Shown: one piece after another, positions 1,952 through 62,700 of the stretch
Numbering within the stretch: the stretch's first letter is position 1
Layout: every line of letters starts with the position of its first letter
Assembly: GCA_030272585.1 (NCBI GenBank)
Contig: BSYQ01000008.1
Location: 434,001-498,000 of the forward strand
Reading direction: 5' to 3'
DNA: 64,000 bases
Origin: Bryopsis sp. KO-2023
Lineage: Eukaryota; Chlorophyta; Ulvophyceae; Bryopsidales; Bryopsidaceae
The notes under the pieces: generated by a model
Told to the model about the DNA's origin: nothing
The model's database searches: none
What the model saw: only the letters and a program-made list of their open reading frames with translations
Made by a program: the position numbers and the translations under genes

Positions 1952-2422
1952 TAGGGATGTCCCTGAGAACTTTTCATGCGAAAATCCACATTTGGGTGGA
2001 CCTTCACAAAATCCACATTTGGGTAATCGTTCGCATTTTTCCCAATAGGATGATAGGTCGCTGGTGAAATTTTGAAAAATTTGTGAGACTAATGATTTGA
2101 AGAAACCGTGGAGACAACTCAATCAATCAATCAATATTACATGGAGACAATTGTGATGTTGCAGTACAACAAACGGGTGTTTTGATGCTGTTGATAGGCT
2201 GGATATTTTTTGAATAGTGCTTGGGGGGTAAGATATATTTCTTTTTTGTAAGGCTGGTGGTTCATGATGTCATTGTGATGAATTTTACAAGCCAGAAAAA
2301 TTCACAAACAATTCACAGTTGGGGAAAAAATTGCACGTTTTTTCTCACATTTGGGCACCGAAAAGTCCCCATCAAAAGTCCACATTTAGGTGAACCGGAA
2401 TTCACACACAGGGACATCTCTA
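1952..2422. mobile_element. hAT-like miniature transposon inserted in gag
   Basis: 471 bp with terminal inverted repeats TAGGGATGTCCCTG (left) and the complement of CAGGGACATCTCTA (right), one mismatch in 14. It is flanked by an exact 8-bp target duplication CCCAGGAC (1944-1951 and 2423-2430). TIRs of the form TAGRG and 8-bp duplications are the hAT signature. Inside are several copies of a CCACATTTGGGTG-type motif near both ends (about 1984, 2008, 2344 and 2381), which look like subterminal binding sites. It has no coding capacity, so it needs a transposase from elsewhere. Confidence 0.9.
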
Positions 2423-3224
2423 CCCAGGACGGTGCGATCTGGATCTCACAGGCGCTGGGTATGCTTCTGTTTGTCGGTTTGCTGAACCTTGTCGCCTATT
2501 GCTATCTCTACATTCAACACGTTTTGGGCGTTCTAAAAAAAGGCTTTACGCTGGTGGAGCGAATTCCTCTCTGTCGTTTGGCAATGGTACTGGGTGGCAA
2601 AATTTGGCGAGTGCTCAAGATCACACTTCAGGAACCTCGAGTAGATACTTCGAGGGATCAGGAATTCAAGGAAATGAAGGCGACACTGGCGGATTTGCTC
2701 AAACGAAATCAAGCCGACAACGACAAACGGTGTACCAAATGCGGCAAATTCGGCCACATCGCCAGGCACTGCAATTCACATCGTCCACAGAACGCAGACA
2801 CACCCTCCAACTGGCGAACATCCCAACCGAAAGTGCAAGCAGTCGGCAATGGTGATATGATTTCGCCAAAACAGACACACCTTCACACCCCTATTACCCT
2901 GAACGGTGTTACTATCACAAAATGCCTCATCGACACTGGTGCAGAAGCTAATATCATTCCACTGACCGATTGCATTCGACATGGATTCGCTTATGACAAG
3001 TGCTCCCAGCAGGACTCGCTCGTTGGTTTCAATGGATCCAAATCCCCCATCGCAGGAAGTGTCACTATGGAGACGTCTGTCGGACCTATGACTCAACCAG
3101 CCCAGATTCCATTCAAGATATCTGCTAATGTTGGGCAGGTGATTCTGGGGTACCCAGGATTACAACAAGTTGGGTTGACAATCAACTGTCAGTCTGGCGA
3201 GCTGATGAATAACCAGACAGGCAG

Positions 3225-6098
3225 ATGTGTGAGGTGCACAGTCGTCAGGAAATCGCCTCAAAAAAACTACTAACGCCCCCGAAAGGGGGCACACTAACCC
3301 TGAATCAGCTTTGGCCACTAGAATCAGGACCAGGAGTTCATTCGAGGAAACAAGACACACTCACTGTACTGGCAGGGAAGTCACATTTTATACCTCCCCT
3401 CACCTGGAAGACGCTATATTTGCCTTTCGCTATGTCAGTCATTGGGGGCGTCACTATCACCTCAGCCATCCATCGTACGGGGATCACCTCTGGAATCAGC
3501 ACCACTGCCACAGGACATCTGCGTGTTGAGGTGTACAACAGTACCACGGAGGTACTTCATTTCACTCCCAGGTCGCAAATGGTCCACCTGACTGGACTGT
3601 CAGACTGGCACATACAGAAATTGGAGTCGCCACCAGAGGATTACACTGTCGCCTCCCTGGTACCCTATCCTGAAACTGCGATCGATGCTGCAACTATCCA
3701 AAGAGAGGTGTGCGAGCGTTTCCCTGATGTCGGCGACCTCAGCGAACATCCCATTATTCCACCGATGGCCCAACTGCAAGTTGAACTGCGGGATTTACCC
3801 CATGTCACACCCACGGAGAATGGAAGTCGGACACAGTACAGCATGGACTCAGTGTCCGACAGGCGAGCCGTGCAAACACTTTTGGATGAGTACGAACACA
3901 AGGGCTACATCCAATCAGTCACGCCATCGGATTCTGTATATTTAAATCCTCTGCTGCCAGTACGTAAGCCTAACAACACGTACAGGCTGACTAACGATTT
4001 CAGAAAGCTCAACGCATATTTCAGACAGGGATCGCCTCCTAATACAGAGACGAATGACACATGGCGGGCCATGTACGACATAGACCCTTCGTGGAAATAT
4101 CTATGTCGCATCGATCTCAAAGACGCCTTCTTTTCGATCCCGATCTCCGAGGATCTATCAAGATTCTGTGGATTCACATGGGGTCCTCGGAGATATATTT
4201 GGAAGCGACTACCGCAGGGTTTTTTATGGTCGTCCGTGCTATTTGCAGAACGTACTGCACATGTGCTGAGGGGACTCGACTGCATCCAGTACGCTGATGA
4301 TGTACTAGTGGGTGCCTCTAGTCGCCAAGACTTATTGCAGGGAGTTCTACAGGTCTATGACCGACTGAATCAGTACGGGATGAAAGTAAATAACGAAAAG
4401 GTAATATGGTTAACCGAGGAAATCACTTTCCTCGGCTACCGAATCAAGAATGGGCGATGGGATTTGGGGCCCTATTTGGAGGAAAAGTGTGACCAACTCG
4501 GACAAGTACAATCAGTAAAAGATCTTCAACGAATCATTGGAATTATCTCATACTGCCGAAGGGCTATTCCGAATGTTGAGGTACTGCTTGCGCCGCTGCG
4601 CGCGCATCTGCGTACAGCAATGGAACGAGGCAAGGTAGATTGGAAGCTAGTAACTGAAGAATCGCACGGTATCGTGCGCTCCACCATGCAGCGCCAACGA
4701 CAGCTACTGACTACAGGAACTACACCTAAGTCGTTTACTCTCGAAAGCGACTGGTCGTCAGGATTTGCAGGATACATGCTTTTTATGCATCCGACCGACA
4801 CCCAGCACTTCGACGCTAACGTGGTGGACATGGGGAGTGCGGTCATGGCTTTACCCACGTCTAGCTATTTGGGCGAGCTGAAAGCTTTAATTTGGGCATG
4901 CAAAAAAACACGCCCAATGCGTGGCGACATACACACAGACATCAAAACAGACAACTGTGCGTTGGCCTCCAAACTACAAGCTGGTGCGATCACAACAACT
5001 GACGTCAGAGAAGCTCGCCTTCTGGGCTGGTTTTTTCAGAACGAAGCTCACTCCACTGTCACCTTTGTGCCTGGCACCGATAACATTGGTGCGGATTTAC
5101 TCTCTCGCCCACACAAAGCGACCTCCAGTCACACTATCAATGCGCTGCAGCCAACTACTGAAACTATCCCCGTGGATATCTGGAACGTGATCCATCAAGG
5201 TCACCCAAGCGCAGATGGCACATGGCGACGAGCTCGACTCCTGGGTTTCCCCTATTCACGATCAACAATCGCCAGTAAGATCTGCACCTGTGCACCATGC
5301 CAACAATTTGCAACCCTCACCCTCCGCACACCTTATGGAAGCTCGCCCACACCCATGCGACCCAACGCTATCATCTCCATCGACCACATTGGGCCACTGC
5401 CTACCATCGACGGCTATCGCTATGTGGCCCTCATCATTGACCACCTCACTCGGTATATTCAGGTCACACCTACAAAAAGTACAGGAGCCACTGAGGTAGT
5501 CTCTGCCCTGCAACACTGGAACGACACTCGAGGACGTTTTCAAACCATTATGTGTGATAATGCTGCATCATTCCGCGGCAGAATTTTCAACTTATGGCTG
5601 GCTGACAACAATATCGCTTTGATTATGACGCCTCCACACCTCCACCGAGCACATGGAATATGTGAACGCGCCAACAGGAATTTCCTGGAGCGCACAAGGC
5701 GGATTCTCGCTGATGAAAAACATGGACGCTGGACGGATGTGCTGCCCCAGGCTGCTGCAGCCTGCAATGATATGGTCAATCGCATCACGGGAGACACCCC
5801 CCGCCGTTTCTGGAACGCAAGTGAAGCAGCCTGGGCTGCCGCCCACACCAACATGGCTCACTCCCGCGCTCTTGTCAACAAAACTCGGACAGGGACCCCC
5901 AAAAGCTGGCGCCTAGGAGCTCAAGTGTGGATTTATGACATGCGCCACACAGGCGCGCTTCGTGGAAAGTTTCGACCTCGCTGGCTCGGACCTGGACGAA
6001 TTGCCCACCAACTCTCAGAAACGAGGTGGGAGGTCAACATGCATGATGGCCGGCGTGTCACCATGCATGCCGACTACATGCGAGAATACGAACTCTGA
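3225..6098 (+). CDS. Pol polyprotein: reverse transcriptase, RNase H, integrase
   Basis: The open frame starts at 3225 but is probably entered by -1 frameshifting at 3261-3267, so the first residues counted from the ATG at 3225 need not be used. Numbering from that ATG: RT with LPQGF upstream and catalytic YADD at residues 356-359; an RNase H domain beginning near D509 (SDWSSGFAGY); a zinc-type integrase N-terminus ending in CTCAPC; and an integrase core with D720, D778 and E814, an exact D,D-35-E spacing. The C-terminal part (AQVWIYDMRHTGALRGKFRPRW region) fits the small basic integrase end domain. The frame is intact for 957 codons with no internal stop. It makes cDNA from the element RNA and inserts it. 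No chromodomain and no envelope are visible. Confidence 0.95.
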   Translation: MCEVHSRQEIASKKLLTPPKGGTLTLNQLWPLESGPGVHSRKQDTLTVLAGKSHFIPPLTWKTLYLPFAMSVIGGVTITSAIHRTGITSGISTTATGHLRVEVYNSTTEVLHFTPRSQMVHLTGLSDWHIQKLESPPEDYTVASLVPYPETAIDAATIQREVCERFPDVGDLSEHPIIPPMAQLQVELRDLPHVTPTENGSRTQYSMDSVSDRRAVQTLLDEYEHKGYIQSVTPSDSVYLNPLLPVRKPNNTYRLTNDFRKLNAYFRQGSPPNTETNDTWRAMYDIDPSWKYLCRIDLKDAFFSIPISEDLSRFCGFTWGPRRYIWKRLPQGFLWSSVLFAERTAHVLRGLDCIQYADDVLVGASSRQDLLQGVLQVYDRLNQYGMKVNNEKVIWLTEEITFLGYRIKNGRWDLGPYLEEKCDQLGQVQSVKDLQRIIGIISYCRRAIPNVEVLLAPLRAHLRTAMERGKVDWKLVTEESHGIVRSTMQRQRQLLTTGTTPKSFTLESDWSSGFAGYMLFMHPTDTQHFDANVVDMGSAVMALPTSSYLGELKALIWACKKTRPMRGDIHTDIKTDNCALASKLQAGAITTTDVREARLLGWFFQNEAHSTVTFVPGTDNIGADLLSRPHKATSSHTINALQPTTETIPVDIWNVIHQGHPSADGTWRRARLLGFPYSRSTIASKICTCAPCQQFATLTLRTPYGSSPTPMRPNAIISIDHIGPLPTIDGYRYVALIIDHLTRYIQVTPTKSTGATEVVSALQHWNDTRGRFQTIMCDNAASFRGRIFNLWLADNNIALIMTPPHLHRAHGICERANRNFLERTRRILADEKHGRWTDVLPQAAAACNDMVNRITGDTPRRFWNASEAAWAAAHTNMAHSRALVNKTRTGTPKSWRLGAQVWIYDMRHTGALRGKFRPRWLGPGRIAHQLSETRWEVNMHDGRRVTMHADYMREYEL
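3261..3290 (+). promoter_or_regulatory. Programmed -1 ribosomal frameshift signal (gag to pol)
   Basis: A canonical slippery heptamer A AAA AAC at 3261-3267 lies in the correct register of the gag frame (caA AAA AAC). A 7-nt spacer follows, then a perfect 6-bp GC hairpin: GCCCCC 3275-3280, GAAA tetraloop 3281-3284, GGGGGC 3285-3290. The gag stop is inside the spacer. The pol frame is -1 relative to gag, exactly as this signal would give. Confidence 0.88.
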
Positions 6099-48971: not shown

Positions 48972-50386
48972 TTGGAGCCACAGCTCTGATCAGAGGAGGA
49001 GGCCTCATGAGGAGGCTGTATAGATGTTGGGACTGGAGTTTTTAGGTCTACTAGTGGTTGGATAGTTTCAGTAAAAATGCACACAGCTTTGCAGTCCGTG
49101 CTGAAGATTCGCCGGCCCCTGCAGTGGCTTTTTGATTGTTGTGGGAACTGGAGCTAACTTTATGTTAACGTTGAATTTATACTGCTCAAATGGGAGTGGT
49201 TCACTTGGCAGGAGAAGGGATATGATTTACATTCTTATTTGTTTGTTTCGAATTGTTTGGTGCGGGTGGATGATTGCCACTTGCGATAAAAGTACTCAAG
49301 GAGTTGGGGTTAAACGTAGTTTAAACAATTTTGTAATTTGCAAACAATTGCTTGCTCATTCACCAAGTCTTGTTCTTCTGTTTTACTTGATTGTCATTTA
49401 AGGGGAATTGTTCGTTTTTGTAGAGGTTCTTTTGTCGAGACGCTGGGACTCTCCCCCCAAGAGTTCTTGAAAACTTACTACGTCTAGTAAACGTGTTTGC
49501 ACATTTTTCATGTATTTCAATCACTTGCACACTGAAATGAAACAGAACGACTCAATCGTTAACACACAACTTTTCACACTTGGGATCAAAACTCAACTGC
49601 CATCCAATTTCTCTTGTGTTTTGAATACTTCTACACGCGTTGTGACGATTCTTGTAGGGCAGCATTCAATGTTTCAAATCATTGCACTTTGGATCAATCA
49701 AGGACGTATGTCGAGCTTCTTTAAGAGCTTTCTTTTCTGGCCTTGATATATCCACACAAGACAAGGTCTAAAATATGCATGCCATCGATGGCAAGCTGCT
49801 CCTGGTATCAGGAGCAGCAAATTGGGCTTTCATGATGAAAGCCCAAGTTTCATCCCAATCCTTTGGACCAAATAGTACAAACACGGAAAGCAGAGCAGGA
49901 TTCTTCCACATATGTGGAAAAAACAGAAAAATGCGCAACGGATCCTAACAGGAAACACCCACTTCATGGTTTCCACCCCTTTCTTTCCCTCATTTTCGAT
50001 TTTTCGCTTGAAGGAGTATTGGTTGGCTTGTGAAATGAAGGACGTTGATAATAAGATGCTCGATTGCTGTTCCGTTGTTATTAAATGTTATGCAATTGAG
50101 TTTGGGATGTGTTTTGGAGAAGGTGGTATTAAAGCAACCTGATAAAAGCTGGATGGAGAGAAAGGAAACAGAATTACAACCCAGCACTCGATCGTTTGCA
50201 TACATATCCCAAACCCCTATTCTAATTGCTGCCAGCTCCTGTTGAGTCATCCATCTGCCCATCTTTTTTCATAGAGATGCTTCACAGCGACTCACCCTAC
50301 CATAAATAATCAGTTCTTTTCCAGTGGAATTTCTAGTGATCATGTATCCCCCAGCAATCTATTTCACACTAAAAACCAGATTGCCT
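48972..50386. other. Spacer with a palindrome cluster
   Basis: AT-rich DNA without convincing genes. It holds the 3' region of the split gene, three adjacent palindromes at 49780-49846, and the 3' region of the minus-strand gene ending at 50387. Confidence 0.5.
49780..49846. repeat. Three adjacent perfect palindromes
   Basis: TGCCATCGATGGCA (49780-49793); GCTGCTCCTG with its complement around GTAT (49795-49818); TTGGGCTTTCAT with its complement around G (49822-49846). All are perfect and separated by 1 and 3 nt. Confidence 0.93.
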
Positions 50387-53300
50387 TCAGGCGTCGTCCC
50401 CATCCACTTTCATTCTCAAATCCTCGCTCCAAAAGGATCGAATCGCTGCAATGTTTTCTTCCCGTTGCTTTTCCAGTTTCTTGGAAGCCTCGAGGTCGAA
50501 CGCTGTCCAAGCCAACTGGAATTCCTCCTGAGCACACCGCCCCATTGCCCGAACAATCATGCAGTACTCGGTCCTTAAAAACCTCAGCCACTCCAAAAAC
50601 CAAGTAGCCCTCCCCCTCCTCGAAGCGTACTCACATCTCGGGCATTCTGTTTTCTGAATCCGATCTGCCCAAGTATGTTGAAGTTTTTCCCAGCCAACGG
50701 CGATTTCCATCAGCACCCTCTTGGTTTCTTTGTTCCCTTCTCGGCAGTCAGACGACAATGCAAAATGCTGGGGTTCTTTGAATCCAAGCTCCAGGGCTAA
50801 AGATGCCAGAAACTCCATCTCCGCATGCCTCGCAAATTGCACGATCGAAGTCTTCCCACGGAAACAAACAACGTGTCGATGCGCCCCCCTCCGGCAGTTC
50901 CATATCCATCCTTTTGTTGCCAACTTTTCTTCATCCATATCCTCTATTCTCATTTTGGAGCAAATGGAACATCTTACATTCGGCTCCACAGTCGACCCGG
51001 CTGTGCCGAATTCTGTTCTGTATCTTTTTTCAGGGTTTTTTCCGTCCTTCTCCAATTCTTTGGCGGGTGGGTGGAGCTCTCTTTTTTGGCCAGATTGAAG
51101 GCTTCCGAGGTTTGGTATTGGCAGGAAACTGTCCAGGTTGAGTAATGGGCTAAATACTGGAAGCATTGTTTTGCCATTTACCCTTCCAACCTTTCGAATG
51201 AAACGGGAAAAAACAAACAAACACAAAACAAGACAAAGAACACGTACCTGAGTCACCTTGGGAAATTATGACTCATTATTATTCATCATCCAATTTTCAA
51301 TTTCGTTTCACACCAAATAGGCGCTTGTTTCATGTGTTACATAAGCGTTAAATTTCTTTCCTTTTTTCCAATGGGGGGTGGTTCGGAATTTACAAAAGCC
51401 CAGGTCGTCGAAAAAAGGGAAGCTTTCTTTTATTAAAAAAATAAGATATAAAAATCCTCACCATGTGGTTTGGATTTTTTATGTCTTGCAAAAGCCCGGT
51501 CCACGTCCACCTCTCCAAAATCATAGTGAATTTGTTCACGGTGTATAACTGAAATGGATCGCACAAGATATCCTCCAACGCCTTTTTCAACTCATCAGCA
51601 GTCTATATAATCGAGCCAAAATGCACAGACACAGATAAAATTACACCAACACTCATTCTGGCAGCAAATCCCTGTTTTTGCAAGAAGATGATTTCGTTAA
51701 TTCGTTTTATTTCGTTCTTTCGTTTTATTTCGTTATTTCGTTTTATTTCGTTATTTCATTATTTCGTTTCATAAGGGTGAGAAAAAAGAAAAATTGAAAG
51801 TGTTACGGGGCACTCAACTTGCCTGAAATTTGTTCATTTGCAGATTGCCTCGTCTGACAAATCCTAGACAGGTTGAATTCTTAAGCTTGTGGCTGTCGCT
51901 GCCAGTTTGCATCCAGTCCACAGGGATTTTTTGCTTCCACAACTCCTTCAGATCTACCTTGGATCCATCTGCAACCATCAACACCTGACCCAACCCCCCC
52001 CCCAAAAAAAAAAAGATTAAAAATTTGAAAAACAAATATATAACAAATAAGTCAAATGAAAATTAAGAAACGAATACATATAACGTAAATTGGAAGAGCA
52101 GAAATACTAAATTTAAAAAAATTAAAACAAAACAATTGTTTTTGGAATAAGAAAAAAATAAAAATAGATCTGGATGAATTAATAAATATTGTAGAGCGGT
52201 GGGGAAATATCACTCATTCGCATAGTGCATGGGGCTTTGAATATTGATGTACCACACTTGAAAAAAAAATAAAAAAAAAAAAAAAATAAAAAACTAAAAA
52301 AACTAAAACTAAAAATAATAAGAAGAATAAGAAGAATAAGAATAAAATAAGAATGGGGTCTAGACTCACAAAGTCAATGTTCGCTTGCTGAGAGTTGCTG
52401 GATTGATGGTCGCCCAACTCGCTTGTAGTCTCTGAGCCCTATTCACGTGAAAACCAAAACCTCACCAAAAAAAAACTGATCTAAAACTTGAACAACTAGA
52501 AAGCACTGCCTGTCATAGATACATCCACCACGAGAGGGAATGCAAAAAAGCAAAGGGCTGAACGTTGTTTATTTTTTCAGGTAATTAAGGATCAATTCTT
52601 TGAATTTTTTTAATTTCCATCACTTTGATTTCACTCGCGAAATAACACAGAAAAAAAAATGCCAGGGCCCCTGCCCAAACACAGAAAAAAAAAGGAGAAA
52701 GAACGCAAAAAAGAAGAAAACGAAAAGAATTCCAGGAGAGTACCGTGCTTTCGTCCAACAGGGATATCACTTCTGCACAACTAGGGGGCTCCACATATTC
52801 TTGTGGTTCTTCTTTCACTTGATCGTCAATTCCAGCAATATCTGTGAAATAAAAAAGGGAAAAAATTGGAATGCACGTGGATCTTCCCACAGCATCGCAC
52901 TGCCCATCTGTTGCGTAAATGAGTGGGGTCTTTCGATTTATCTCTTTAAAAAAAAAAAACAAACAAGCAGCATTGACTGGAGAAGCACCTTCCTCACAGC
53001 CTGCAGGGGGGTTCGCCGATACTTCATGCTGTGAAGGCGGATGTACCACCGCTTTTTTTTCTACCTTTTTGTTTTTATCATTACCCGTGGACACCTGCGC
53101 CAGTCACAGTTCTTTATCCCTTTCTCAAAAAAGATATCAAGAAAATTATGACAAAAGGATTAAAAAAAAAGAAAAAGTGGGGGGGGGGGGAACCCCAAAA
53201 AGTTGAGACTGAAGTGGGGTCCATGAAGAATGCACAACATCCACAGCAACAACGTACAAAAAAGAGCATGTCAGAAATTAATAGGTTTACATACATACAT

Positions 53301-53666
53301 AGTTTGGAAGTCATTTCTTTTTTAAAGCCACATTTGCATCGATGCAAACCCCATCTGCATCCCTTGCAAAAAAATGTGTTCAAACATTATCCAGCCTCAC
53401 ACCTTGGGGTCCAAGGGGTTGAAACTCATGTCAGTCTGAGCGAAGTGCGACTCCGTGTACTTGTCCAGGAACCCTTCCCCTATGTGCTTCGGAATGAGCG
53501 AATCATTCATCGCATGTTGAACATTAAAAAATATTTGAGCAGGCTTCCAGTTTTTGGCCTGAGCCATTCTCCCAAAGGAGTTCAACATGGAGGAAGCGGC
53601 GGTTTCTTTCTCATCGTCCTCCAACTCCGCCAAACTCTTGAAAAAAGAGATCAACCTGTCTGACAT
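50387..53666 (-). CDS. Novel SUMO-motif/zinc-module family, member B
   Basis: Seven exons on the minus strand: 53666-53403, 53094-52965, 52841-52744, 52438-52370, 51984-51823, 51602-51462, 51190-50387 (555 aa; phases consistent). One donor is the non-canonical CAG/GCAAGT. Residues 1-75 are a helical domain (MSDRLISFFKSLAELED ... NWKPAQIFFNVQHAMND ... HIGEGFLDKYTES) nearly the same as in member A. Residues 140-144 are VKEEP, a psi-K-x-E sumoylation consensus, followed at 156-164 by VISLLDEST, a SUMO-interaction motif with acidic flank. Exons 5-6 encode a 101-residue region absent from A (KVDLKELWKQKIPVDWM, LEDILCDPFQLYTVNKF). The C-terminal module has C362, C365, C387, H394, C397 and a later ECPRC. 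Probably nuclear. A non-coding or short first exon may lie upstream, as in A. Confidence 0.75.
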
Positions 53667-55159
53667 TTTTCGATCGACTGCACAGTCAAACCACATGGAT
53701 GTGTCAACCTAACCCCACCACAGTTGAAAACTAGATGCTCCAATCCAATGGTTGTTTATCAGCTGAAAATTAGGGGACAAAAAACGACAACAGCAGCAGT
53801 ATAGGGGTGAGTTGGGTTTGGTATGGGTGCCTGTATGTCCGTGCAGATTCACCTGCAGCACTTCATGGATAAGGTTAGCGCCTTTCCCCCATTAAAAAGG
53901 CAAATAAATGAAGAGTTATGGGATAATTGAGCACTACCTTCACTCTATAACTTCAATTTTCATGGATAAGAACATTTTCCGACGCTGTACCTCTGCACAA
54001 AAGGAAATTCTGCTCACGTATGCGGATTGACCCTGATGTGTCATCCAATCCAATGGATCCTGAGCAAGAAACGATCGACGACGATTCTAGCGAAACGGGG
54101 GGCTCTGAGTCTGTCTGACGCCCATAAAAGGAGATCTCAAGGGAGGTGTGTCAGTCAGTTCCACAGATTTACCCCCCTAAAAAAAAAAATACAGCCGCTC
54201 ATTTGCAGTGGGGGTGTGTTTGTTTTCATGTTGAATTTAAACCAGACGTCTTGGGTGCGGCATTGTTGAACATTATGTTGTTTTTTTGTGGGAAATGAAG
54301 CACAGGTGGTGGTTTTCGGGCTGCCTTCAGTTTGAGAATTCAATCCAGTTTGCAATTGTGGTGGCGATGACAGACTTACACAGAGGTGTTTCAACATCAA
54401 TATTAAAGCACTTGGAAACAAATAGAATTAACTAGAGGACAGACACACGCACACACATTCATCCCACAAAAAAAACACACACAACCCACTCAGGTAATTT
54501 CCCCTGAAATCCAAATTGTGCAAAAGCAAAAATCGCCCTAGACTGATTTGCATGCCCTACCTCAAACTTGACTTTTCCCCCCTAAAAAATAGTTGACTAA
54601 TTTTCAGCTAAAAATGGCTAGACCACTGGCTCGTGAATACATGCGGTCCCTTCCGAACACTCAGAACGTTTTGAATCCTTTTTCTCTTTTTCCTCCACCA
54701 GAAAAGAATGCCCACACTTTTCCAAGCCAAGCAGTGGAAAAAAACAACAACAAGACATACATTTTGGATTTAATTTCCGATGCGACTGCTTACTTTGCAA
54801 AAATTCAAAAACAGCCCATTCCGATTGATTTTTTTTTTTCTTTTTAAAGGAACGCACAGATTTTGAACTCTAGTGTTTCAAGGATTTACCTTGCATTCAA
54901 TCTTTCATTTTCTTTTCCCCAGTCGAAAAACAACACCCACTCCACTAAAGTAAGTGCACTAGCTGATGGTCAAGACTGAAACGCTATTACCATGTAATAT
55001 TACCCCCCTCCCTCACAAATTAAAAAAGAACAAAAAAAAGCTTCCTGAAGATGTGGCTGAGTTTGAATACATATACACACACACACACATATATATATAT
55101 TCTTCTTTTGTTTCTTGTGTGTGTGTGCTTAATCGAGCATGGTACTATGCTCGCATAAA
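53667..55159. other. Spacer between family members B and C
   Basis: The acceptor and 5' leader of member B lie at 53667-53680 (GTGCAG then TCGATCG, as in A). The plus-strand frame 54593-54847 is short and not convincing. Microsatellites (AC)n/(TA)n at about 55075-55100. Confidence 0.45.
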
Positions 55160-55701
55160 TTATCCATGCAAAATTGTCGTGGATTTCAGCCGGGCTTGCA
55201 AAATCTCCATGCAGGAGTCCAGGAATGGATCCAGAAATCCAGCACAGGTCCATGTGCATGCAGGGCATTGGTTGCTGAACACCTCCATCGCAATCGAATC
55301 GTCCGCCATTCGATACATTCGCTCCTCCGTTATTCGCAGCTTGGGCAAAGCCACCCTGTTCACGTCCAAACTTCTCAAATCCTTCGTTTTTTGAAAAAGG
55401 GTCCAGAGAGTGAGGATGGTCAAAATACAAGGTTTCAAATTCCCCTTTTGATCGAAGGTGCAGACGCGATGTAAAGCATGGCCGCCGATCAGAGGTTCGC
55501 ATGCGATGAATTCCATGTAGCTACAGCATTCCGCTTCGGAGGTGGGCTTATGTTTGCAAACGGAGCAAGTCACGGGGTCATCCACTTTTGATTTCTTCCT
55601 TCTGGGGTATGGGACGGCTGGAGGTTGGACCAGATGTCTGGCGAGAGGTTGCAGGGGAGGGGCGCCTTTGTCGAAAACTGTTTTGAAGCCAAAGGTATTA
55701 C
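55160..55701 (-). CDS. Novel family, member C: partial, C-terminal zinc module only
   Basis: One long terminal exon in frame from an acceptor at 55702 (or a second at about 55678) to TAA 55160. It begins with a Pro-rich and basic segment (PPLQPLARHLVQPP, YPRRKKSKVDD), then repeats the module of A and B: VTCSVCKHK, a gap, ALHRVCTFD, a roughly 85-residue helical stretch (LPKLRITEERMYRMADDS), NQCPACTWTC, and a final helical part. Sequence identity with A and B is low, but the order and spacing of cysteines and the HxVC centre are kept. No MSDKL-type first exon is found between it and the end of A. It is therefore either a truncated copy, or has upstream exons (a candidate GTGTTTGTAAGATCTCCTG exon near 55940) that I cannot join. 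Confidence 0.5.
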
Positions 55702-56219
55702 CTGATGCACCACATGCCCATTAGAATTGAAGAATATTAATATTAATATTAGTATGCACAGGGTGCTTCCAGGGGAGATGAGAGGCTGTAAAAATATTGG
55801 GAAGAAGACTCAATGGTCGGATATTGATAAAACAATCTATTGGAATTGTTTAAAAAATGAAGGCGAGCACAATTGGAAATCGAAAAATATTCGGCTCATT
55901 ACTGATCATCGCTTTTTTTTCCCAACCTGGTCAGACTCACCAGGAGATCTTACAAACACCTCATCAACAGGAAAAAAAAAACAACAAAAAAAACTTGCAC
56001 AATTGATGAAGCATCCAAAATATCCCAAAAATATGTTAACAGGAAAAAAAGATACTCACCCCTGTTTCAGAATTGATTGACACAGGGGGCTCTTTTTCAC
56101 TTTTTTTTTCCCATAAGAATTCCGTGTCGGCACAAAAATTTAAACAACAACACTTATTTCTTATACTTTTTTCAAATTATTGACAAATCATCAACTTTGG
56201 ATGATTTCCGCTTACATCC

Positions 56220-59200
56220 CTACCAAGTTTCCGATGATTCAGTACCTCCATGCCCCTGATTCTCAGCAACCCCTTCCTTTTCCAATCGGGCACTGCCCTC
56301 CGGCTCAGCCCCCGAGCATTCCCCATTTCGGGACCTGCCCTGATTTCCAGTCAGACTTTTCCCCCGAGCATCCTGCTCCTTCCTCCTCCATGCACTCTCC
56401 AGCTCCACGGCAGCATCCCTCTCCATCGACCCCACTATATGCGCATAGCATTCCGCCAGCGATCGAACCCACTTGAAAAACTCGTGGGAAAAACCACCCC
56501 GTGTCATGTAGATGCACCTCGGGCATTCGCTGGTTCTCACTGCAGCTTTCCAAGTGTGTTGGAGGGTTGGCCATTCCTTGGCGATGCTGATCAGAACTTC
56601 CTTCATTTCGCTGACGTCGGAATTGCTGCCTATTGTCTTGAAACCCTTTTGCAACGCTAGGTACCCCAGAAATTCTAGGATCGCATGGCGCTTGATGACG
56701 GTTTGGTTGCCAGGATTTCCTCGGGGGCATACGATGTGCCTGCAATCGTATGGATTTTTTTACCGTTATTAGAAAAATTCGGAACGAAAAAAAAAATAAA
56801 AAAAAAAATCCCAACAAAATCAGCACTCCTTCACAATAGCCAAATGTTAAATGTCGAAATGTTAAGAAAATGGTGTGTTGGATAGCCACCCATGCGAGTT
56901 TTCGCCCATCCAGAAAAGGGGAATCAGAAACAAAACGACTGAAATACAAGTTGAAACGAAACGAGGGGGGGGGGGGGGGAGAAGAGATGCCAATCCACGA
57001 AAAGAGAGGAAACTCTAATAAGAAAGGCTCGCACGCACTTGTATTTTCCATTGCATTTCCAAACCAGGTCGGCTTTGTTCAGCATCGCTTTCTCGAAGTC
57101 CGAAAAGTGCGTAGTGGAGCATACCCCACAGCGAACATATTCCGTTTCTTGGGAATATGTGTGGTCTTGAACTGCAGCATCCTCCAGCTTGACCCTCTTT
57201 GGGTTTTCTGAATTTTGACAGGAAAAAACCCTCCTCCTCCTCCTTCGGGGGGTGAGGCTTGTGCTCGGTAATGGAGGCAAGGGGGTGCTCTGCTTGGATT
57301 CAGCAGAGGGCTCAGCACAGGGCTGAGCAGAGTTATCTGCAGAGGTCTGAGGGAAGCACACAAAAGAAAATTAAAAAACCCAAAAAACATTTATGACTAT
57401 GTGCAACCTGCAACCCAGCATTTACTTCCTGTGGAGACTGGCGAAGGCAATGAAACAGCAAAAAATCAAGCGGAAAAGGATTCATTCTCTGGATAAACGG
57501 CAAAACCACAAGAAGAAATGAGGGAATGAACAATTAGTGTGTGTGTGTGTGTGTACTTGGTGGTGTGTTTTGTTTTGTTTTTTTTGGGGGGGGGGTTGGG
57601 AAGGAAAATGACATATAGAGAACACAGCTGAATAGCGTGCCGGGCTCCACTGTCATCGCTACCATTATCAGCAAAAAGAAATAAAAAATTGAAATGAAAT
57701 GAAATGAAATGATGGTCTCCTGGTGACCATCATTTCATTTCATTTCATTTCATTTCATTTCATTTCAATTTTTATTTTTTTTGCTGATAATCTCTGGAGC
57801 AGTGGACCCATTTTCAAGCACTCACATGGTATGAGATATTTCAAAAGGAAGAACGGCAAAGCAACTAAAACAAGGTGATCCTTCATGCGTTACCTCAGAA
57901 TCGTTCAACAAGGAGATGACTTGTGGAGGGTCTCTTTCTTGTGGCAGGACGTCTCCACAGTTTTTCTCCCCAGGTTGCTCTTCTATGGGCTCCTCTTTTA
58001 CTGGGGGGAGATCTACAGGATCTTTTCTTTCAAGCACGCAGCTTCCACCGACATCCGTGGGCTCTGTGTGGACTAAAAATAAAACAGGGAAAAACAGTGA
58101 AGGGAGGCTTTGAAAACAGGAGAGGAACCTCAACCCCGTGATCAATCTTAGCATAAGGTTCTTTTTCCTCATATTTGAAGTTCAACATTATCTTTACCCA
58201 AGCACATTTATTTTTTTATTTACTGTTCCAGGATTGGTATTTGCAGATATTAGGCAGGAAAAGGAAACTGCAGCACTTCATCTATTTCTCAGATACAGCA
58301 GATAATTCTGGCGAGGCAAAAAACTGTGGAGGGGTAAAAAGGATACACCCAAAAAAGGAGCCCCCCAAAAAAGTGCATCTCTCAGGAGCAAAAATTCCCC
58401 GATCCTAGGAAACTCATGTAGAGGATTGTCTTCTACAACATTTCAGGATTTCTGGTGGGCAGCAGTGCCTGTTTTTTCAACTCTTTGATCGAATTATTTT
58501 CCAGAATTTTTTGTCGAAGTACCTTGGGGATTTTGGGGGGCTGTTGGGAAATTGGAGTTGGACACCTCCAGCTTGGGGCCGGCATCAGCAAACACCTGCA
58601 TTGTGTGGAAATTGGAACTTAAAACTCAAATAAATACCATTTCTCGTATCTTCTTGAATATATCCCACTACGTACAGCTCTTGTGAAAACCTCAAGTAGC
58701 CTATCACGCAAAAAATGAGCATCCAACAGATTTTATTTATTTATTTTTTTTGGGGGGGGGAGGGTTAAACAGTTGAGGGTTTCAGCACTCGCGAGCGTAC
58801 GGCCCCCTTCCCCCTTAAACTGACCTTCCCCACTTCTCCAATATTTTCATTGGTTCTTTTTCGAATCGAAATTGCAAGGGGCTGGACTGAGGTGACTCAT
58901 AATACATTGGTTCAACCTGATGCGAAGCGTCAGCTCCACATCAAAATTTCTTTCCATACCTGCGACTCCGTGTACTTGTCCAGGAACCCTTCCCCGATGT
59001 GCTTCGGAATGAGCGATTCATCCATCGCATGTTGAACATTCAGAAAAATTTGAGCGGGTTTCCAGTTTTTGGCCTGAGCCTCTCTCCCAAAGGAGTTCAA
59101 CATGGAGGAAGCGGTGATTTCTTTCTCTTTGTCCTCCAAGTCCGCCAAACCCTCGAAAAAATGGATCAACTTATCTGACATTTTCCGATCGACTGCAAAC

Positions 59201-59466
59201 AAGAAAGAAAAAAAAAGGCTTTGTGGATTTGGATATAAGAAAGAAAATTCCATCACAACTGGAAAAACATGAGTAGAAAAGAAAACTGTGGGGGTGTTTA
59301 GTAAGACAGTAGTCATGCATTCGTCATGAGTGTAGAATCGAGCAGAAGGTCTCCAGGGATCATTGCTGATGAAAAAAAGGAAACTGGTACAAGGTGAAAA
59401 AAAACAATCGAATGTAACGCCAACATGGAAGGAGAAAAAACAACGCTTACGAGGTGTAGCCTCCAT
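56220..59466 (-). CDS. Novel SUMO-motif/zinc-module family, member A
   Basis: Six exons on the minus strand: 59466-59451, 59192-58960, 58595-58523, 58072-57894, 57346-57039, 56739-56220 (442 aa; all phases agree). The tiny first exon gives MEATP; the second contains an internal MSDKL that may be an alternative start. Residues about 10-83 are the family N-terminal domain (LIHFFEGLADLED ... FGREAQAKNWKPAQIF ... HIGEGFLDKYTES). VKEEP (132-136) is a sumoylation consensus and VISLLNDSE (159-167) a SUMO-interaction motif with acidic tail; RVKLED (218-223) is a second psi-K-x-E. TPRRRRRRV at 199-207 is a probable nuclear signal. The C-terminal module is C240, C243, C265, H271, C274, then SECPRC and a helical tail. 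The role is unknown. The motifs suggest a nuclear, SUMO-regulated protein, possibly DNA- or chromatin-binding. Confidence 0.78.
57664..57791. repeat. Inverted pentanucleotide-repeat hairpin in an intron of member A
   Basis: A (GAAAT)n block (57691-57710) and an (ATTTC)n block (57730-57767) face each other around GATGGTC TCCTGGT GACCATC. The unique flanks are also inverted (ATTATCAGCAAAAA at 57664 and its complement ending at 57791), so the whole 128 bp is an imperfect palindrome in the intron between exons 4 and 5 of that model. Confidence 0.88.
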
Positions 59467-60300
59467 CTCTACAAGTTGCGCATTCCTGGTCGAAAAACCT
59501 CGCGCTCGCGTTTCGGATTCTTGTTCCGCAGGCGCTCGCCTTGCACAAAACGTTTGCTCTGTTCAGATTCCTTCTAGGGCGGTCAGTCCAGTTCGTGGAG
59601 GGCGTGCAGATTTCCACGGTTTGAGTGGATCTGGGGGAGGAGGGGCGTTTTCGAAGTGCAGGAAGGGATTGGTGGGGGGGGGGCGGTGGAATTGGTGGCA
59701 AGTTAATTTTTTTAATTTGTTCCAAAATTATCATTAATTTTGTACTGCTGGAGGGAAGTTGGAGTCGTACTCCTTTTTCACAAACCCGATTTGGGAATCA
59801 ATCGCCTTCTCTCGTGCAGTTGCTCAGCGAGCATCGGAGACTTGTGTTAGTTTTTTTTTCGGTGGTTCGTGGTTCTTTTTTTTGAAAGAGGGCAACGGTC
59901 GAACGAAGGTACGAAAGCCGTGGCGAGATTATAGACGGTTTGTTTTTCTGAGAAGCGAGCGCACGCGCGTCTTGTCACGTCGTTTTGGGCATCCCTGCGC
60001 GGTCTGGGGACGTTTTTTTTTCTTTTTTTGTTCCGCGCTTGTTCGCTCGTCACGGGAGTGAGATTTTCGACAGCGGTTTTGTCCGGTGGGGCTGGCGACT
60101 AGCTTCGAAAGGAGCTCTTTTGTTACTTTTTTTGTTCGAAAGGAATTTTGACGAGAATCCCTGGGCTGTCTTTTCCCCGCTTATCACCCTTTCTGAGCAA
60201 GGATGTTTTTAGTGGTCAACGAGCATTGGGAAGCTGGTTAACTGCGGGGGTCTCAAGCCATTTTGACGTTGCATTCACTCCGCAGGTAGCGTGCGCAAAA
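59467..60300. promoter_or_regulatory. Divergent promoter region of member A and the hnRNP gene
   Basis: 834 bp between the two start codons. CpG-containing stretches (for example GCGAGCGCACGCGCGTC at about 59956-59972) suggest a housekeeping-type promoter for the hnRNP gene. A CCGCAG at 60280-60285 could be a 5' UTR acceptor just upstream of its ATG. Confidence 0.4.
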
Positions 60301-62700
60301 ATGAACCCCGGTTATTTCAAGAAAGAAGAGGAGGACACCGGTCCGATGGTCATGCGAGGCGGGATGATGCCTGGTGGTTATGGAGGGGGAGGGATGGGCC
60401 CTTATGGTGGGGGGTATGGCGGCGGTCGAGGGATGTCTGGCCCACCCACGGGCGACGTGGCATTCGGTGGACGCGGAGGCCGTCCCCCTCAGTTGCAAGA
60501 AGGAAAACTTTTTCTGGGAGGTTTGGACAATCAGACGACCCGCGAGAACCTGCTGGAGTATTGCATGAACTGGTGAGAGGAGCTACCGAGGAGGAGAGGA
60601 TGGGGTTTAAAAAACAGATAGGGGGGGTTGGGATCGCGGACTGCAGTAGGGGGATCGAATTAGAACGATCCTTGGACGGGCCGATCGGGTGAAAGGTGTA
60701 GGGCATGCCCCAGTATGGGTAGGGGTCGGTTGAGAATCGACCTTGGGCGATGCGGTCCACGCGCGCTTGGTCTCAGTTAAAACGTTTGGGCGGAGAGGTT
60801 AAGAGGAGGGTCAGTTTTGCGGTTAGGTTCCGTCACCAGCTTTTCTTAAATCTTTACTTATTTTTTTTTCCCTATTCTTTTATTCTTTTGGATGCCTCCC
60901 CCCTTTTTTGTCTCGCTTATATTTGCATTGCAGGTCAGGAAATATACTCTCTTTGCCGTGGGCTCACAGGTTTTGGAACCTTTTTGTAGGGGCAAGATAT
61001 CTGATGCTGTAGTGATGGAGAACAGAGGTTTTGGATTTGTTACTTTTGAGGATCCAAAAAGTGCTCAGAAATTCCTGGAGGTGAGGTTTTATTTTCGGAC
61101 GTCAGTTTTCTATTTCTCCACTTATGCTTGCTACATTTGGCCCCAGTTTCAGGAAATAGAGGGAGAAAGAGAGATCCTCTAGGTATTGGTCCAGCCAGGG
61201 GAGGAAGAGTAGCTCTTTGACCACACCGTCGCCCACTTGATCTTAATCCACTTAATCCATGCCTAGATTTGGAACATAGGATGATCTAGTGCGCGGGGTT
61301 AGGGAGCGTAGGAGGGGTAGATGCCGGATCGGAGCGTTTAGCGGGGAAAAAAGAGCGGTGGCTGAGTTGTGTTGTGTTGCTTATTGATTGTGGTTTTTTC
61401 AGGTGCGCGACCACACGATTTTGCAAAAAAGGATCGAAGCCAAAGCGGCTGTCCCGAAGAACCAAGGGAGCTCGAGTCAGCTGACGAAGAAAATGTTCGT
61501 TGGAGGCACTGTAAGTGGAAAATCGGATAAAGCGATCCTGAAAGGTCGTGAATGCTACGTGAAATAACCTAGAAAATTCTCTCTCTCTCGGTTTAATTCT
61601 GTTTAAAATATGCAACAGGAATTCCACGGCATCGCAAGCAACTGTGTAATTTTGTTCTATTGTGGGCTGATCAATTGAAACACGGGGGGGGGGGGGGGGG
61701 GGTTCTACCTATAATATTACCAGCGCCTTTTGCAAGATAATACCAGAAACTGGCTGGGCGAATTTGGCCTGTGGCTTCCTAATGAGTTTCTATAAACAAT
61801 TTTTTTCTCTCTCTGTGCAGGGCGAAATAACTGACGAGGAGTTCAGGGCATACTTTGACGTCTTTGGAGAGATTGAAGATGCAGTGGTAATTTAAATGGT
61901 TGGCATGTCGAGTTGAAATCCAGAACTGGTTCAATTTTTGCAGAAGGCCACAGGAAGAGGCACCCACATACGTACACAAAATAAGAACCTGCAAATAACC
62001 TGCAAAAACTCTGCAAAAATTCCACGGAACCCAGCCATTAAATCTGTTGATATCGAGATATATATTGTTTTGGTGTCCACATTTCGTATTTCAGTGACCA
62101 GAAGGTTGAACTTGTGGAGATAATTGTCCATGCGCATGTTAAGAAAACACATAATAAGATTTTTTATTTCCGTTTCACCAGATTGTTAGGAAAGACGGTG
62201 TATCCCGAGGTTTCGGTTTCGTCACTTTCAAGGACGAGATTTCAGTCGAAAAATGCCTCGTTCAATCTCACATTCTGCCTAATGGCCGAAGAGTCGACAT
62301 CAAACGGGCGGTCCCTCGGGATCAAATGGGCCCCATGATGGGTCCAGTTTCCGGAGCTGGTGGATTCGGTGCAGGAGGGGGTGGTGGAGGCGGTGGCGGT
62401 GGCGGCGGCTTTGGTGGTCGAGGGAGAGGAGGGCGGATGTCAATGGGGGGTATGGACGGTTACGGCTCGATGGGCGGAGGTTATGGCATGGGGATGAGTC
62501 CTTATGGAAGCTATGGTGGCGGTGGTGGTGGTGGCGGTGGGGCTGGCATGGGCGGTTACGGTGGACTGGGTGGAGGTTATGGAGGCGGCGGAGGTGGCGG
62601 TTACGGTGGAGGTGCTGGGGGTGGAGGGTATGGAAACTCTGGGGGCTACGGACGTATGGGCGGTGGACGAGGGTATGGCATGAGATACCGCCCTTACTGA
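60301..62700 (+). CDS. hnRNP A/B-like RNA-binding protein: two RRMs and Gly-rich tail
   Basis: Five exons: 60301-60572, 60990-61080, 61403-61510, 61821-61886, 62182-62700 (351 aa; phases 2, 0, 0, 0). A Gly/Met-rich N-terminus (about 65 residues) precedes RRM1 (RNP2 KLFLGGLD, RNP1 RGFGFVTF) and RRM2 (RNP2 KMFVGGT, RNP1 RGFGFVTF), then a tail of about 125 residues almost entirely Gly, Tyr and Met. The order of tandem RRMs then a Gly-rich domain is that of the hnRNP A/B, DAZAP1 and squid group, which act in nuclear pre-mRNA packaging, splicing and mRNA localisation. The Gly-rich tail is the low-complexity, condensate-prone type. RRM1 contains an NQTTRENLLEYCMNWGKI segment that is split by intron 1. 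A further intron lies in the 3' UTR (62712-63318). Confidence 0.9.

What the first reader, a model, noticed from the sequence alone, without database searches (positions are those of the whole stretch)
50387..59466. A tandem gene family with a conserved N-terminal domain, paired SUMO motifs and a CxxC...HxVC...CPxC module
Two complete multi-exon genes (A 442 aa, B 555 aa) and a partial third (C) lie in the same orientation. Seen in sequence: the first coding exons of A and B are close copies, even the 5' leader TCGATCG is kept, and both carry V-K-E-E-P followed about 15-25 residues later by V-I-S-L-L plus acidic residues. All three end in a module with CxxC, then HIVC, HVVC or HRVC, then CPRC or CPAC. 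Known: psi-K-x-E is the sumoylation consensus and VIxLL with acidic flank is a SUMO-interaction motif. Inference: a nuclear SUMO-linked, zinc-binding family expanding by tandem duplication with fast divergence outside the first exon. I recognise no named family.
Basis: partly seen in the sequence, partly recalled or inferred. Interest (0 to 1): 0.85.

Follow-up and report, generated by a model that had tools for sequence, protein, structure and literature searches.

The report
Orphan zinc proteins with copied exon
Two neighbouring genes of the giant-celled green alga Bryopsis encode zinc-binding-type proteins with no recognisable relatives in the databases searched; they look like old duplicates, yet one short exon seems to have been copied recently from one to the other.

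Summary
The window is from Bryopsis sp. KO-2023 (siphonous green alga); all features are on the minus strand. A third, dispersed gene on contig C6 has both zinc-type modules; no N-domain was found near it.
The Cys/His module is real: 8 Cys/His columns are invariant in 3 of 3 copies whose synonymous sites are saturated. VKEEP and VISLL are conserved as protein despite codon divergence, so a SUMO link is plausible but untested.
In the near-identical exon 56 of 61 shared residues use the same codon, against 30 of 62 in the module. One 237-bp ungapped tract (91%) fits gene 1's exon to within 5 bases; gene 2's exon runs 43 bases further. This points to recent short copying between old paralogs.
No relative turned up in the protein, domain, viral or prokaryotic collections searched, but close algal relatives are probably not held.

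The parts
   Evidence: ATG, donor GTAAGC; spliced model equals P0002
58960..59192 (-). gene 1 exon 2: N-terminal helical domain (MSDKLIHFF...DKYTESQ)
   Evidence: four helices, block-mean pLDDT 54-80, in the model of the gene-2 homologue
58961..59197 (-). copied tract in gene 1: 237 bp, 90.7% identical without gaps to 53446-53682; begins 5 nt before the exon and ends 1 nt before the exon end
   Evidence: only blastn match between the two gene regions at E<=0.01, same strand; the two genes hold the only genomic copies found
58523..58595 (-). gene 1 exon 3 (linker)
57894..58072 (-). gene 1 exon 4: linker with psi-K-x-E VKEEP (57987-58001) and SIM-like VISLL+acidic (57906-57920)
57039..57346 (-). 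gene 1 exon 5: basic run RRRRRR, KRVKLED, start of zinc-type module 1 (CGVC, WKC)
56246..56739 (-). gene 1 exon 6: rest of module 1 (HIVCPRG, RHA, CPRC)
55160..55701 (-). gene 1 exon 7: module 2 (CSVC ... HRVC ...
   Evidence: donor 56246|GTACTG, acceptor CATCAG|55701, 614 aa equal to P0002
   Evidence: P0001
53446..53682 (-). copied tract in gene 2 (partner of 58961-59197)
52989..53094 (-). gene 2 linker exon
52744..52841 (-). gene 2 linker exon with VKEEP (52804-52818) and VISLL (52756-52770)
52370..52438 (-). gene 2 linker exon
51823..51984 (-). gene 2 middle-region exon (GC donor); no other match in the genome search
51462..51602 (-). gene 2 middle-region exon; no other match in the genome search
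50387..51190 (-). gene 2 last exon with module 1 (50977-50501: CSIC, WNC, HVVC, RHA, CPRC)

Best explanation
A small protein family, so far seen only in Bryopsis: two tandem genes in the window and one dispersed gene on contig C6. Each window protein has an N-terminal four-helix domain, a flexible linker carrying a SUMO-acceptor-type site (K133) followed by a SUMO-interaction-type motif, and one or two zinc-binding-type modules (module 1: C-x2-C-x21-C-x5-6-H-x2-C-x-R-G ... R-H-A ... C-P-R-C). Most likely they are nuclear, SUMO-regulated adaptors: the zinc modules dock on a partner (protein or nucleic acid), the linker is SUMOylated and binds other SUMOylated proteins, and the helical domain holds complexes together. 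Shown: anatomy, gene structure, constraint on the Cys/His positions and on the two motifs, old age of the duplication, recent origin of the N-exon identity. Inferred: zinc binding, SUMO conjugation, nuclear location, assembly. The shared N exon is explained by recent gene conversion or exon copying between the old paralogs.
For: Gene models equal public proteins. Module 1 in the three genes: 25-41% protein identity, saturated synonymous sites (pS 0.77-0.86), dN 0.64-0.87, yet 8 Cys/His columns invariant and the first spacings constant. Motifs conserved with changed codons, in a stretch modelled with pLDDT under 50. N exon: 1 of 21 four-fold sites differs against 13 of 21 in module 1; silent-site contrast Fisher p = 2e-12; single ungapped 237-bp tract. 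In a ubiquitin-like gene cluster of the same genome, paralogs about 87% identical align some 740 bp beyond the open frame, so rapid decay of flanking DNA is not the obvious reason for the sharp edges. The genome has Rad60-SLD (ubiquitin-like) matches and one zf-MIZ (SP-RING) match. The C6 gene has a SIM-like ELVVISSEME between its modules.
Against: No homologue outside Bryopsis supports any function. The AlphaFold model of gene 2 is middling (mean pLDDT 49; 135 of 547 residues at 70-90, none higher) and module 2 failed (pLDDT 35). The known part of the C6 gene has no [VI]KxEP, only MKAE inside module 1 and PKLE, and no N-domain was found near it, so the layout is not family-wide. The SUMO motif test is post hoc. 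Only gene 1 has a clear basic run. The Rad60-SLD search apparently also hits polyubiquitin, so SUMO itself was not singled out. Gene 2's exon continues 43 nt beyond the tract, so the exon-edge fit is complete only for gene 1.
Confidence: 0.5

Rival explanations
1. The N exon is similar only because the protein domain is strongly constrained while the rest diverges fast.
For: 84% protein identity in the N domain against 41% in module 1.
Against: Silent sites are also nearly identical: 56 of 61 shared residues keep the same codon against 30 of 62 in module 1; 1 of 21 against 13 of 21 four-fold sites differ. Within the N exon dN/dS is 0.58, on 6 silent and 15 replacement differences, which does not suggest strong protein constraint.
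Confidence: 0.05
2. The exon is constrained at nucleotide level (RNA structure, splicing or antisense gene), so silent sites are frozen without copying.
For: The similarity fits gene 1's exon edges closely; an antisense frame is open across much of it in both genes.
Against: No Rfam match at gathering scores in 49000-60500; predicted folding of the sense strand no better than shuffles (z 0.35 and 1.12). The antisense frame was not tested further.
Confidence: 0.15
3. The SUMO reading is fortuitous: VKEEP and VISLL belong to another short linear motif (for example a degradation, export or co-regulator docking site) in an acidic linker.
For: Whole-linker alignment is not significant (319 of 2,000 shuffles); the motif names are recalled consensus patterns; no SUMO data.
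Against: Both motifs are kept together in both paralogs with changed codons, lie in a low-confidence, presumably disordered stretch, and the strict pair is absent from 20,000 shuffles of each linker (post hoc).
Confidence: 0.4
4. The reader's C is a third, separate gene.
For: Exon 6 of gene 1 runs into an in-frame stop (442-aa form) if intron 56245-55702 is kept.
Against: Public annotation joins them (614 aa); splice phases fit; the C6 gene has the same module 1 then module 2 order with a GTGAGT donor.
Confidence: 0.1

Closest known systems
SP-RING SUMO ligases (PIAS/Siz, Pfam zf-MIZ PF02891)
   Same: Combine a Cys/His module, SUMO-interaction motifs and nuclear function (recalled); H-x2-C ... 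C-P-x-C is reminiscent.
   Different: No zf-MIZ match to the family at E<=10; 62-73 residues lie between H-x2-C and C-P-x-C, against a much shorter spacing recalled for SP-RING. The genome has one zf-MIZ match elsewhere.
SUMO-targeted ubiquitin ligases (RNF4 type)
   Same: SUMO-interaction-type motif upstream of a C-terminal Cys/His module (recalled).
   Different: No RING family among the Pfam matches; the recalled RING spacing is not met.
VEFS region of SUZ12 (PRC2)
Gene conversion between tandem duplicates
   Same: A short recent tract of high identity, silent sites included, between old paralogs.
   Different: The tract fits gene 1's exon at both edges (5 nt and 1 nt) with no trace in the introns; in gene 2 the exon runs 43 nt further.

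Membership tests
SP-RING / zf-MIZ (PF02891) | match to the zf-MIZ profile | tested here: not met
   hmmscan of both proteins and the joined C6 protein at E<=10 lists no zf-MIZ
RING / STUbL | match to a RING-type Pfam profile | tested here: not met
   no RING family listed at E<=10
SUMO substrates/receptors (functional class) | psi-K-x-E site and hydrophobic SIM with acidic flank in a flexible region | tested here: met
   VKEEP and VISLL+acidic in both window genes; low pLDDT at residues 78-351 but for one. Motif patterns recalled.
SUMO substrates/receptors (functional class) | actual SUMO conjugation or binding | not testable with these tools
   needs an assay
Zinc-binding domain | invariant Cys/His ligand set across divergent copies | tested here: met
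   8 invariant Cys/His columns in 3 of 3 module-1 copies
Zinc-binding domain | bound metal, or ligands clustered in a structure | not tested
   model coordinates not measured; module-2 model failed
SUZ12 VEFS | VEFS fold | tested here: inconclusive
ZNF451 C-terminal zinc fingers (PF23107) | profile match over the curated cut-off | tested here: not met
   14 bits against a cut-off of 30, E 0.07-0.08

The most novel reading that the evidence does not exclude
A protein domain was passed between two old paralogs as an exon cassette: one exon, cut close to its splice sites, replaced or was inserted into the other gene without its introns, perhaps through an RNA-derived template. This would be a short-range, nearly exon-precise form of domain transfer. 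The two resulting genes define an unnamed zinc-binding family under SUMO control in a giant single-celled alga.
Probability: 0.17. Interest if true: 0.65.

Novelty: new variant of a known kind. Interest (0 to 1): 0.4.

Why it matters
If the exon-edge fit is causal, it is a clean example of exon-limited homogenisation with a built-in clock (dS 0.16 against saturation) that a sister Bryopsis genome could test directly. The family itself is a lead for lineage-specific regulators in a coenocytic alga, where one cytoplasm serves very many nuclei.

Tried and rejected
Known families: Pfam at E<=1 and E<=10, NCBIfam and PHROGs at E<=1: only sub-threshold Pfam matches (ZNF451_C E 0.07-0.08, DUF5444 0.11-0.15, KH-I 0.025, Lipase 0.15), taken as chance. 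PADLOC was not run. PDB by sequence: full alignment 0 matches, N domain 0, gene-2 middle region 0, module 2 0; module 1 had four matches at E 0.09-2.1, taken as chance.

Relatives: two protein searches returned only the two Bryopsis proteins (the 7,995 and 7,990 candidates sharing most words were scored). The C6 gene was in the second query but no such public protein appeared, so it is unannotated or outside the length range. Viral contigs: 0 confirmed relatives in three scans. GTDB genomes: 0 in two scans. Each scan used two short peptide patterns. Control for database coverage: a Rieske/PaO-type oxygenase of the same contig gave only two Bryopsis proteins at E<=1e-60 among 3,543 candidates. 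The cut-off was strict, but a close algal orthologue should pass it, so other Bryopsidales are probably not held; "orphan" means only "orphan in what was searched".

RNA-level constraint on the exon: no Rfam match, no unusual folding of the sense strand.

Papers: seven full-text searches listed no paper on this family or on exon-limited copying in Bryopsis; the Bryopsis nuclear genome paper (recalled) did not turn up. I saw only listings and abstract starts (e.g. PMC12509668, PMC11852573); no paper was opened.

Full report
What is there. The window belongs to a 91-Mb eukaryotic genome (contig C8:434001-498000) whose public proteins are those of Bryopsis sp. KO-2023, a siphonous ulvophyte green alga. 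The features lie on the minus strand. My spliced models equal the public proteins BSKO_08983 (614 aa) and BSKO_08982 (547 aa) letter for letter, the second after leaving out a 9-nt microexon that I had first included. The "partial third gene" is gene 1's last exon, 55701-55160. So the window holds a tandem pair, not three genes.

Third relative. Searches of the whole genome with single proteins found one further gene on contig C6 (about 3,297,778-3,299,747, minus strand) with module 1 and module 2 in the same order. A GTGAGT donor and a T-rich acceptor would join them. No N-domain was found in the 20 kb fetched around it (best E 2.6). A 128-bp scrap, 95% identical to gene 1's module-2 exon, sits at C8:1,793,573-1,793,700.

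Modules. Module 1 in the three genes keeps C-x2-C-x21-C-x5-6-H-x2-C, then R-G, R-H-A and, after 67-73 residues, C-P-R-C. Eight Cys/His columns are invariant: 8 of 13 Cys/His positions of gene 1 against 17 of 144 others. Pairwise protein identity is 25-41% and synonymous sites are saturated (pS 0.77-0.86). That is what a metal site under purifying selection looks like; metal binding itself is inference. Module 2 has a comparable order of H-x2-C and C-P-x-C (62-64 residues apart) but aligns poorly near its first Cys pair.

Motifs. VKEEP starts at residue 132 in both window proteins, and VISLL with acidic neighbours follows at 159 and 148. Four of five VKEEP codons and three of five VISLL codons differ between the genes while all ten residues are the same: selection on the peptide. 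The linker of gene 2 is modelled at pLDDT under 50 from residue 78 to 351, apart from one residue. The names "SUMO acceptor" and "SUMO-interaction motif" rest on recalled consensus patterns. Against this, the linkers as wholes align no better than shuffles (319 of 2,000) and the motif test was written after the fact. The C6 gene has a SIM-like ELVVISSEME between its modules but no [VI]KxEP, only MKAE within module 1 and PKLE. The genome has ubiquitin-fold matches and one zf-MIZ match, so the pathway is plausible.

The copied exon. Between the two gene regions (55000-60300 and 50000-55000), blastn on the same strand at E<=0.01 finds a single match: 237 bp, no gaps, 90.7% identity, 59197-58961 with 53682-53446. 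It begins five bases before both exons and ends one base before the end of gene 1's exon; gene 2's exon runs 43 bases further. The 60 bases on either side match at 30% and 27% without gaps. Inside the 73 compared codons, 6 of 42.7 silent sites and 15 of 176.3 replacement sites differ (dS 0.16, dN 0.09). Of 61 shared residues 56 use the same codon; in module 1 it is 30 of 62. At four-fold sites 1 of 21 differs against 13 of 21; the silent-site contrast has Fisher p = 2e-12 on rounded counts. Protein constraint cannot do this. Sense-strand RNA folding is ordinary and no Rfam family matches. Fast decay of flanking DNA is not the obvious reason: in a ubiquitin-like gene cluster of the same genome a pair at 87% identity aligns over about 1.1 kb, some 740 bp of it beyond the open frame (whether all of that is non-coding is not known). 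The genome searches found no further copy of the exon. I conclude that one exon was recently copied between two old paralogs. Why the tract ends at gene 1's exon edges is open: chance, a spliced-RNA template, or selection against longer tracts.

How it probably works. Best guess: SUMO-regulated nuclear adaptors, with zinc-type modules as the docking part, a SUMO site plus SUMO-binding motif in the flexible linker as the switch, and a helical N domain for assembly. Shown: anatomy, constraint, recent exon identity. Inferred: zinc, SUMO, nucleus, assembly.

Known or new. No family in Pfam, NCBIfam or PHROGs, and no PDB sequence, matched convincingly; no viral or prokaryotic relative was confirmed; fold searches were uninformative. 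The protein database probably lacks other Bryopsidales, so restriction to Bryopsis is not shown. I file it as an unnamed variant of a familiar kind (lineage-specific zinc-type regulators) with an unusual copying event.

Noticed in passing
window 57664-57791 (intron 4 of gene 1): An inverted repeat spanning about 128 bp (arms up to 49 nt, 80-96% complementary, GAAAT/ATTTC runs inside ATTATCAGCAAAAA ends); it matches itself in reverse over 101 bp at 86%, and only a 41-bp resemblance was listed elsewhere, at C4:2530740.
   Followed up: partly
window 2218-6098 (+): Long open frames with features of an LTR-retroelement polyprotein (zinc knuckle, reverse transcriptase YADD, integrase-like end), read by eye.
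   Followed up: no
L050-L056 (contig C17:146,835-198,721): Eight ubiquitin-like open frames of 305-355 aa (six on +, two on -); the + copies are about 75-89% alike in DNA and some align beyond their open frames.
   Followed up: partly
L012:4573-4700 (C8:1,793,573-1,793,700): 128-bp scrap of gene 1's module-2 exon (95% identical), ending at CAATG beside a small hairpin, near a Rieske/PaO oxygenase gene: a second short, ungapped copy from this family.
   Followed up: partly
window 51248-51256 (-): Possible 9-nt microexon GTGACTCAG between AG and GT in gene 2; the public protein leaves it out (547 against 550 aa).
   Followed up: no
window 60301-62000 (+): Glycine-rich RRM-type RNA-binding protein gene, divergently placed beside gene 1, read by eye.
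   Followed up: no
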